From: Halomonas sp. THAF5a
GTDB lineage: Bacteria > Pseudomonadota > Gammaproteobacteria > Pseudomonadales > Halomonadaceae
NCBI RefSeq assembly: GCF_009363755.1
Contig: NZ_CP045417.1
Coordinates: forward strand, 3,100,001-3,164,000
DNA length: 64,000 nucleotides
Reading direction: 5' to 3'
Shown here one piece after another: positions 45,383 through 46,440 of this stretch. Numbering within the stretch: position 1 is the first letter of the stretch; every line of letters begins with the position of its first letter. Made by a program: the position numbers and the translations under genes. The notes below the pieces were generated by a model that was not told where the DNA came from, searched no databases, and worked only from the letters and a program-made list of their open reading frames with translations.

Positions 45383-45474
45383 CCGGGGACAAGACGAAGC
45401 GAGGGTCCTACGCCAGGGATGGCGTCGGTAGCGCCCAGGGAGGGGGTCACAGCGCCCTCGCGGCGTCTTGACGC
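45383..45474. repeat. Structured repeat copy A (hyi-glxR spacer)
   Basis: A ~90-nt element beginning CCGGGGACAAG. The outer arms CAAGACG (45390-45396) and CGTCTTG (45464-45470) pair, as do inner arms CGAGGG (45400-45405) and CCCTCG (45455-45460), and a central hairpin CGCCA-GGGA-TGGCG (45411-45424). A second copy with compensatory changes lies at 46348-46440. Confidence 0.75.
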
Positions 45475-45524
45475 CGGGATAGCTCATCCCGACCGCTGCC
45501 CTGTCCCGTCACCGCTTTCTGCCT

Positions 45525-46310
45525 TCAATGTTCAGCCTTAACATCGTCCAGCCAACCCAGGCCTTCCTGGGTCCCCGCCCGGGGCTTGTACTCGGCGCCG
45601 ATCCAGCCCTGGTAGCCGAGGCGGTCGAGGTGCGCGAACAGGAAGGGATAGTGGATCTCGCCGCTGCCCGGCTCGTGGCGGCCCGGGTTGTCGGCCAGCT
45701 GCACGTGGGCGATGCGATCGAGGTGCTTCTCGATGGTCGGGGCCAGATCCCCTTCCATGATCTGCATGTGATAGATGTCGTACTGCAGCTTCAGGTTGTT
45801 CGAGCCCACCTCGTCGAACAGCGCCAGGGCCTGCTCGGTGCGATTGAGGAAGAAGCCCGGGATGTCGCGGGTGTTGATCGGCTCGGCGACCAGCAGGATG
45901 CCGGCGGCCTGGAGCTTCTCGGCGGCGAAGCGCAGGTTCTCGACCAGGGTCCGGCGCGCCTGGTCGTCGCTGACGCCCTCGGGCTTGATGCCGGCCAGGC
46001 AGTTGACCTGGGTGTTGCCCAGGACCTTGGCGTAGGCGATGGCGCGGTCGACGCCCGAGCGGAACTCCTCGACGCGGTCCGGGTGGCAGGCGATGCCGCG
46101 CTCGCCGGCGCCCCAGTCGCCGGCCGGCAGGTTGAACAGCACCTGGGTCAGGCCGTTGTCGTCGAGGCGGCGCTTGAGCTCGTCGGCCTCGACGTCATAG
46201 GGAAAGAGGTACTCGACGCCCTTGAAGCCCGCGTCCGCGGCGGCCTCGAAGCGGTCGAGGAAGTCCACCTCGGTGAACAGCATGCTGAGATTGGCGGCGA
46301 ACTTGGCCAT
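45525..46310 (-). CDS. hyi: Hydroxypyruvate isomerase
   Basis: A 261-aa TIM-barrel isomerase of the Hyi family (E. coli Hyi is 258 aa): KFAANLSMLFTEVDFLDRFEAAADAGFKGVEYLFPYD, LVAEPINTRDIPGFFLN, QYDIYHMQIMEGDL. The frame extends upstream but ATG 46310 matches the family start and follows a GAGAG site. It interconverts hydroxypyruvate and tartronate semialdehyde. It is flanked on both sides by copies of a structured repeat. Confidence 0.92.
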   Translation of the reverse strand: MAKFAANLSMLFTEVDFLDRFEAAADAGFKGVEYLFPYDVEADELKRRLDDNGLTQVLFNLPAGDWGAGERGIACHPDRVEEFRSGVDRAIAYAKVLGNTQVNCLAGIKPEGVSDDQARRTLVENLRFAAEKLQAAGILLVAEPINTRDIPGFFLNRTEQALALFDEVGSNNLKLQYDIYHMQIMEGDLAPTIEKHLDRIAHVQLADNPGRHEPGSGEIHYPFLFAHLDRLGYQGWIGAEYKPRAGTQEGLGWLDDVKAEH

Positions 46311-46347
46311 GTCGCTCTCCTGGATCAATGAATCATGTGGTGGGGCA

Positions 46348-46440
46348 CCGGGGACAAGCCGAAGAGGAGGTCCTATGCCAGGGATGGCATCGGTAGCGCC
46401 CATGGATGGGTTCACAGCGCCTCCTCGAAGGCTTGTCGAC
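46348..46440. repeat. Structured repeat copy B (gcl-hyi spacer)
   Basis: Same orientation as copy A. The arms are CAAGCC (46355-46360) with GGCTTG (46430-46435) and AGGAGG (46365-46370) with CCTCCT (46420-46425); the central hairpin is ATGCCA-GGGA-TGGCAT (46375-46390). Base changes relative to copy A occur on both sides of each helix so that pairing is kept. Confidence 0.75.

What the first reader, a model, noticed from the sequence alone, without database searches (positions are those of the whole stretch)
45383..46440. Two copies of a structured ~90-nt repeat with compensatory base changes flank hyi
Copies at 45383-45474 and 46348-46440 share most positions, yet their differences fall largely in paired arms and preserve pairing: outer arm CAAGAC/GTCTTG versus CAAGCC/GGCTTG, inner arm CGAGGG/CCCTCG versus AGGAGG/CCTCCT, and central hairpin CGCCA-GGGA-TGGCG versus TGCCA-GGGA-TGGCA. 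That covariation points to selection on a folded RNA or cruciform. Both sit in spacers of the gcl operon in the same orientation. I do not recognise them as a described element; they may be a Halomonas ERIC/REP-like family or a regulatory RNA.
Basis: seen in the sequence. Interest (0 to 1): 0.75.

Follow-up and report, generated by a model that had tools for sequence, protein, structure and literature searches.

The report
Scattered RNA repeats with CsrA-type loops
Two copies of a folded repeat sit beside the hyi gene of a Halomonas-like bacterium; dozens more are scattered through its genome, often just after the ends of genes, and each carries two hairpin loops of the kind that the global regulator CsrA is known to bind.

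Summary
The two copies (45377-45486 and 46342-46451, + strand) belong to a dispersed family: 66 matches in the own genome, 58 of them above 54 bits. 34 of 37 same-genus genomes have it. Compensatory change is real: 25 of 35 pairs among 25 own copies, and 22 of 35 among 12 orthologous copies of one spacer.

The element is a three-way junction with a long outer stem and two hairpins with loops C[ANGGAN]G. The second loop fits in 96 of 96 copies. This is the published CsrA/RsmA motif. 55 of 85 copies between genes lie 20-40 nt after a stop codon, in either orientation.

It is not Halomonas-specific. A second model finds relatives in 41 of 223 Gammaproteobacteria. Rfam's TwoAYGGAY (RF01731), already proposed to bind CsrA (PMC4333381), hits some of the same places but nothing in five same-genus genomes.

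Verdict: an unrecognised, divergent, repetitive branch of the TwoAYGGAY type, spread like REP/ERIC/MITE repeats. CsrA binding is inferred, not shown. Both window copies are antisense to the gcl operon, so its mRNA would not display the GGA loops.

The parts
45377..45486 (+). copy 1 of the repeat, hyi-glxR spacer, antisense to the operon (38 nt from the hyi stop codon, 86 nt from the glxR start)
   Evidence: R1 model 118.3 bits; gene positions
45410..45425 (+). copy 1 hairpin 1, ACGCC[AGGGAT]GGCGT
   Evidence: sequence; structure
45433..45446 (+). copy 1 hairpin 2, GCCC[AGGGAG]GGGG
   Evidence: sequence; structure
46342..46451 (+). copy 2 of the repeat, gcl-hyi spacer, antisense to the operon (18 nt from the gcl stop codon, 31 nt from the hyi start)
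   Evidence: R1 model 128.9 bits; gene positions
46375..46390 (+). copy 2 hairpin 1, ATGCC[AGGGAT]GGCAT
   Evidence: sequence; structure
46398..46411 (+). copy 2 hairpin 2, GCCC[ATGGAT]GGGT
   Evidence: sequence; structure
46470..48245 (-). gcl, glyoxylate carboligase (upstream gene of the operon)
   Evidence: NCBIfam TIGR01504, 1171 bits against cut-off 711
45525..46310 (-). hyi, hydroxypyruvate isomerase, between the two copies
   Evidence: NCBIfam TIGR03234, 415 bits against cut-off 353
44403..45290 (-). glxR-type 2-hydroxy-3-oxopropionate reductase (downstream gene)
   Evidence: NCBIfam TIGR01505, 381.5 bits against cut-off 340.75

Best explanation
The two copies are members of a dispersed palindromic repeat family, a divergent Halomonas branch of the TwoAYGGAY type. 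Shown: the structure (outer stem, three-way junction, two hairpins with C[ANGGAN]G loops), its compensatory evolution, its copy number, its preference for the first 20-40 nt after stop codons, and its class-wide relatives. Inferred: when transcribed in the strand given, usually as part of the 3' end or intercistronic stretch of an mRNA, the two loops bind one CsrA/RsmA dimer. The copies would then act as scattered CsrA-binding sites that titrate CsrA and tie the fate of the neighbouring message to it. In the opposite orientation, as in this window, the mRNA shows only a plain long hairpin, without the CsrA motif. The family spreads and turns over like a small non-autonomous mobile repeat; the mobilising enzyme is not identified.
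For: Copy number: 66 own-genome matches, 58 above 54 bits; 150 of 5070 first-look candidates were scored, so this may be a lower bound. Covariation; orthologous copies of one spacer, 22 of 35 pairs with double change, 54 double against 4 single changes. Loops: second hairpin ANGGAN in 96 of 96, first exactly so in 89 of 96 and containing ANGGA in 93 of 96, with both N positions variable. Over 26 copies from 23 genomes of 21 families the second loop holds ANGGA in 26 of 26 and the first in 24 of 26; 6 of 26 second hairpins fit the SELEX consensus RUACARGGAUGU at all 12 positions (read by eye; consensus from passages of PMC4347634; 5'CANGGANG3' from PMC6849547). Position: own genome sense and convergent copies 29 of 40 at 20-40 nt after a stop against 9.5 expected, genus set 20 of 29 against 6.6. 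Own genome has one csrA. csrA in 39 of 40 element-bearing against 32 of 40 element-free genomes, Fisher p 0.029. RF01731 hits coincide in place and strand with listed R1/R2 hits in 10 of 25 matches.
Against: Binding was not tested. ANGGA loops are as well kept in the 29 antisense copies as in the 45 sense copies, which does not follow from a function in the host mRNA. The sense excess in the own genome (35 against 16, p 0.011) is absent in the genus set (10 against 13). Both window copies are antisense, and no sigma-70-like promoter was found around them. The csrA association is weak and not corrected for kinship; G255 has 9 matches and no csrA hit. Loops break the motif in some copies (e.g. 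1 of 12 orthologues in each loop). The window copies and the own genome do not match RF01731.
Confidence: 0.55

Rival explanations
1. A selfish non-autonomous mobile repeat (MITE/REP-like). The hairpins and loops are kept because the mobilising machinery reads them, and the place after stop codons is where insertions do least harm. CsrA plays no part.
For: In G113, 9 fetched copies share terminal inverted repeats CTAAATACGTGTTCCGAAT..ATTCGGAACACGTATTTAG (two or three with small variants); G140 has 11 fetched near-identical copies. ANGGA is kept in antisense copies too. Presence at orthologous spacers is patchy: gcl-hyi 3 of 11, hyi-glxR 5 of 11 loci looked at. Inverted neighbours occur.
Against: No Y1 transposase (PF01797) in the own genome, nor in G024 or G026, which have 29 and 34 copies. 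Near 20 PF01797 loci only one 19.7-bit match was found. No target duplication seen by eye in G113. The best pair of own copies is 94% identical and the median 73%, so no recent burst in the own genome. Some spacers keep the element in many species (thrC 3' spacer 25 of 30). A transposase reading exactly the CsrA consensus would be a coincidence.
Confidence: 0.3
2. A 3'-end mRNA element that works as a plain hairpin in either orientation: it protects the upstream message from 3' exonucleases or shapes differential expression within operons, as proposed for REP/BIME and ERIC.
For: Place 20-40 nt after stop codons in both orientations; 1 of 58 own copies lies between divergent genes against 10 of 29 window spacers over 100 bp; both strands fold; no T-run terminator in the stretch scanned.
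Against: Does not explain why the loops, rather than the stems, are the fixed part. In the class-wide set the arms change from copy to copy and the loops do not.
Confidence: 0.3
3. The covariation is a DNA-level product: template switching between the arms makes the palindromes perfect (quasipalindrome correction), with no selection on RNA.
For: Double changes far outnumber single ones (91 double cells, about 11 one-sided). Inversion of the core against the same outer spacers in 4 of 11 G140 copies shows that the arms recombine or switch.
Against: Among single transitions G.U outnumbers A.C on the loop strand: 62 to 29 in A5, 17 to 3 in A8, 13 to 6 in A7 (p 0.0007, 0.003, 0.17), as expected for RNA pairing. 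Cells are not independent, and A5 and A8 were fitted to the model. It does not explain the fixed loops.
Confidence: 0.2

Closest known systems
TwoAYGGAY RNA (Rfam RF01731)
   Same: Outer stem, then two hairpins with GGA hexaloops, in the same order and strand. The RF01731 model passes its cut-off in 3 of 20 genomes tried (G273, G039, G041), and 10 of its 25 matches lie on listed R1/R2 matches. CsrA binding has been proposed for it (passage of PMC4333381).
   Different: No match at E 0.1 in five same-genus genomes, three with the element and two without, and none in the window. The second loop position is mostly G here, not a pyrimidine. I saw no statement that it is a high-copy repeat or lies after stop codons; the listing in PMC2864571 gives human gut, gamma-Proteobacteria and Clostridiales and rates it probably not cis-regulatory.
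CsrB/CsrC and RsmX/Y/Z sRNAs
   Same: Several GGA hairpins that bind CsrA (passages of PMC4383904 and PMC4347634).
   Different: Those are single sRNA genes with many sites; here two sites per element, dozens of elements, and no promoter found around the window copies.
ERIC/IRU and REP/BIME repeats
   Same: Dispersed palindromes of about 30-130 bp in transcribed spacers, some as inverted pairs (family features recalled).
   Different: No RAYT gene (PF01797) in the own genome; different sequence; paired CsrA-type loops.
CsrR1/CsrR2 of Alcanivorax dieselolei
   Same: Putative CsrA-related RNAs in a related marine group (passages of PMC9788540).
   Different: Described there as two individual sRNAs, not as a repeat.

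Membership tests
TwoAYGGAY (RF01731) | score above the Rfam gathering cut-off | tested here: not met
   0 matches at gathering in the window; 0 at E<=0.1 in the own genome
TwoAYGGAY (RF01731) | two neighbouring hairpins enclosed by an outer stem | tested here: met
TwoAYGGAY (RF01731) | loops AYGGAY (pyrimidine at positions 2 and 6) | tested here: not met
   loops are ANGGAN; of the four window loops only copy 2 hairpin 2 is AYGGAY
TwoAYGGAY (RF01731) | common descent with recognised members | tested here: inconclusive
   R1, built on Halomonas copies, hits G041 and G051 places that RF01731 also hits, on the same strand; a chain of models, not a tree. cmscan with default filters listed only L321 of four such loci
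CsrA/RsmA-binding RNA | ANGGA in hairpin loops closed by C-G, in pairs | tested here: met
CsrA/RsmA-binding RNA | binds CsrA | not testable with these tools
   needs gel shift or CLIP
REP/BIME | RAYT (Y1 transposase) in the genome and next to elements | tested here: not met
   none in own genome; 9 of 13 other genomes have PF01797 but only one 19.7-bit element match near 20 such loci
REP/BIME and ERIC | extragenic, near gene 3' ends or within operons | tested here: met
   home-made gene caller
MITE | terminal inverted repeats | tested here: met
   seen in G113 copies; not established for Halomonas copies, whose outer ends are variable
MITE | target site duplication | tested here: not met
   none seen by eye in 9 G113 copies
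CsrB/RsmZ-type sRNA | own promoter and terminator | tested here: not met
   0 promoter-like and 0 terminator-like sites in 45200-46700 by a simple consensus scan

The most novel reading that the evidence does not exclude
A class-wide mobile palindrome seeds paired CsrA-binding sites behind genes throughout gammaproteobacterial chromosomes, so that part of a cell's CsrA-titrating capacity lies in the 3' ends and spacers of ordinary mRNAs rather than in dedicated sRNAs. Inversion of the core between its own arms (seen in 4 of 11 G140 copies) would switch a given message between displaying and hiding the CsrA sites.
Probability: 0.25. Interest if true: 0.85.

Novelty: new variant of a known kind. 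Interest (0 to 1): 0.6.

Why it matters
It links three things usually kept apart: dispersed palindromic repeats, the orphan RNA motif TwoAYGGAY, and the Csr/Rsm system. If the loops bind CsrA, dozens of messages per genome carry high-quality CsrA sites at their ends, CsrA titration is a property of the genome at large, and regulon maps based on 5' leaders miss it. If they do not, the case is a warning that perfect CsrA motifs and strong covariation can be kept by a mobile repeat.

Tried and rejected
RAYT-driven REP: rejected for the own genome. Intrinsic terminator: no T-run (flanks printed). Simple in-place inversion as the sole cause of mixed orientation at the thrC 3' spacer: weakened, because the asymmetric ends flip too and several spacers keep a remnant of a second, inverted copy; inversion between the arms is nevertheless seen in G140. 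Carriage by phages or plasmids: a 66-nt core from L276 had no match in phages, plasmids or E. coli; the window copy had one plasmid record of 72,556 (Halomonas sp. PA16-9, 1.83 Mb) and was not tried against phages or E. coli. Empty site for target duplication (L033 against L143): the empty spacer is too short to show one. Literature: searches listed no paper that I could see describing this repeat in Halomonas; only open-licence papers were searched and no supplements.

Gene calls are from my own codon-model caller. The 30 loci for thrC and for holC are the best 30 of 61 genomes each. A7 uses 26 of the 40 matches; among those left out are copies with broken loops (L061, L065:1091, L088:1278, seen). 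The 40 element-free genomes were taken in handle order, leaving out G087 and G097. Gene names thrC, ilvE and holC are my reading of sequence, from no call.

Full report
Observation. The window contains two copies at 45377-45486 and 46342-46451 on the + strand. They flank hyi in a minus-strand run gcl (46470-48245), hyi (45525-46310), glxR (44403-45290); the three names are supported by NCBIfam equivalog models above their cut-offs. Copy 2 begins 18 nt after the gcl stop codon, copy 1 38 nt after the hyi stop (coordinates). The window has no other strong match.

A repeat family. BLAST with copy 2 found 41 places in the own genome, with 40 of 84 candidates scored. A covariance model R1 from 25 own copies found 66 places at E<=0.001; 58 exceed 54 bits and the next is 40 bits. 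In 58 relatives' genomes 39 have matches: 34 of 37 of the same genus (own included) and 5 of 21 others of the order, the latter with lower scores. G001, G033 and G035 of the genus have none.

Structure and covariation. Over 25 own copies 25 of 35 pairs show a change on both sides, and every measure exceeds 500 shuffles and all slid versions; RNAalifold on the same alignment gives nearly the same structure on its own. Since paralogues can mislead, I checked one orthologous spacer (ilvE-holC by my reading): 12 of 30 loci have the element there, all 12 in sense, and 22 of 35 pairs are doubly changed, 54 cells against 4 single changes. In the spacer on the other side of holC 10 of 30 have it, 2 sense and 8 antisense.

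Loops. In 96 copies (58 own, 38 from other genomes) the second loop is A-N-G-G-A-N in 96, with the N positions taking all four bases; the first is exactly so in 89, contains ANGGA in 93, is broken in 2 and missing in 1. Exceptions exist elsewhere: in the 12 orthologues one first loop (L356) and one second loop (L350) break the motif. The pattern equals the Rsm motif 5'CANGGANG3' (passage of PMC6849547) and the core of RUACARGGAUGU with GGA in a hairpin loop (passage of PMC4347634).

Place. With my own gene caller, the 58 own copies fall into 35 sense and 16 antisense between co-directional genes, 5 convergent, 1 divergent, and 1 inside a weakly scored ORF. In 32 copies from other genomes of the genus: 10 sense, 13 antisense, 6 convergent, 2 divergent, 1 unclassified. 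Distance from the stop codon is 20-40 nt in 29 of 40 own sense or convergent copies (9.5 expected if uniform in the spacer), 6 of 16 own antisense (2.7 expected, p about 0.04), and 20 of 29 in the genus set (6.6 expected). In other families of the order the rule is not evident in the 38 copies looked at.

RNA or DNA. Among single transitions that spoil a Watson-Crick pair, G.U exceeds A.C on the loop strand (62:29, 17:3, 13:6), which favours RNA pairing. The excess is similar in sense (33:17) and antisense copies (19:9), and loops are equally kept in both. That speaks against a function exerted only in the present host message, and for selection on the family as such or for frequent change of orientation.

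Turnover. In the gcl operon, among 11 loci (own, nine Halomonas-type records, G016) the gcl-hyi spacer holds an element in 3 and the hyi-glxR spacer in 5, in both orientations; H. caseinilytica keeps a remnant in the former. At the thrC 3' spacer 25 of 30 genomes have one (23 by model, L260 and L268 by eye), 11 sense and 14 antisense, with at least 9 changes of orientation on the thrC tree, no better than shuffled. Remnants of a second inverted copy in several of these spacers suggest an old inverted pair with alternate decay.

Beyond the genus. A second model R2, from 26 copies of other families of the order, finds matches in 41 of 223 genomes of the class, 36 of 191 genera. In 26 copies from 23 genomes of 21 families the core is strikingly alike while the 20-30 bp arms differ from copy to copy and still pair (539 Watson-Crick, 17 G.U, 3 A.C, 13 other cells). 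Single copies fold with z-scores from -8.8 to -14.0. In G113 the element has terminal inverted repeats; in G140 the core with its arms lies inverted against the same outer spacers in 4 of 11 copies (by eye).

Relation to the known. Rfam's TwoAYGGAY has this architecture. Its model passes the cut-off in 3 of 20 genomes and matches at E<=0.1 in 8, with 10 of its 25 matches on listed R1/R2 places and strands; in five same-genus genomes, three of them with the element, it finds nothing. One class copy reaches 35.3 bits against a cut-off of 43. Rfam's default scan had reported nothing in 20 loci of the order and 1 of 4, so the filters matter. Gardner-type motif annotation already proposed CsrA binding for TwoAYGGAY (passage of PMC4333381). 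So the kind is known; the Halomonas branch, the repetitive and mobile character, the place after stop codons and the breadth in Gammaproteobacteria are what I found no description of in the searches named under Tried and rejected.

CsrA. The own genome has one csrA (NCBIfam 121 bits against 73). Of 40 element-bearing class genomes 39 have csrA, of 40 element-free 32 (p 0.029); kinship and genome size are not controlled, and G255 goes against.

Most likely working. Shown: the fold, its conservation, copy number and place. Inferred: sense transcripts bind CsrA through the two loops, the outer stem guards the 3' end, and the sum of copies titrates CsrA. For the two window copies, which are antisense, only the hairpin part applies to the operon mRNA unless the + strand is transcribed.

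Noticed in passing
L166:2759-3000 and L268 (thrC 3' spacer): In H. salipaludis and G022 the first hairpin is enlarged by a nearly alike insert of about 90 nt that itself ends in a GGCC[ANGGAT]GGCC hairpin, i.e. a third CsrA-type loop nested in the element.
   Followed up: no
L033, L248, L256, L247 (spacers 3' of genes): A short AAGCT-rich repeat (AAGCTATAAGCTGGAAGC and the like) often lies between the stop codon and the element; in L247 it is a GCTTCGA tandem.
   Followed up: no
G051: This genome has 9 csrA-family hits, 11 Y1-transposase hits and about 29 young-looking element copies with like arms.
   Followed up: no
G000:C1:716007-716915: Three copies within 1 kb of the own genome, all on the minus strand.
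   Followed up: no
L158:2914-3000: H. urmiana has, in place of the element in the gcl-hyi spacer, a 14-bp perfect hairpin with a GGGG loop.
   Followed up: no
48588-49430: (S)-ureidoglycine aminohydrolase gene upstream of gcl on the same strand, which suggests an allantoin-to-glyoxylate gene cluster.
   Followed up: no
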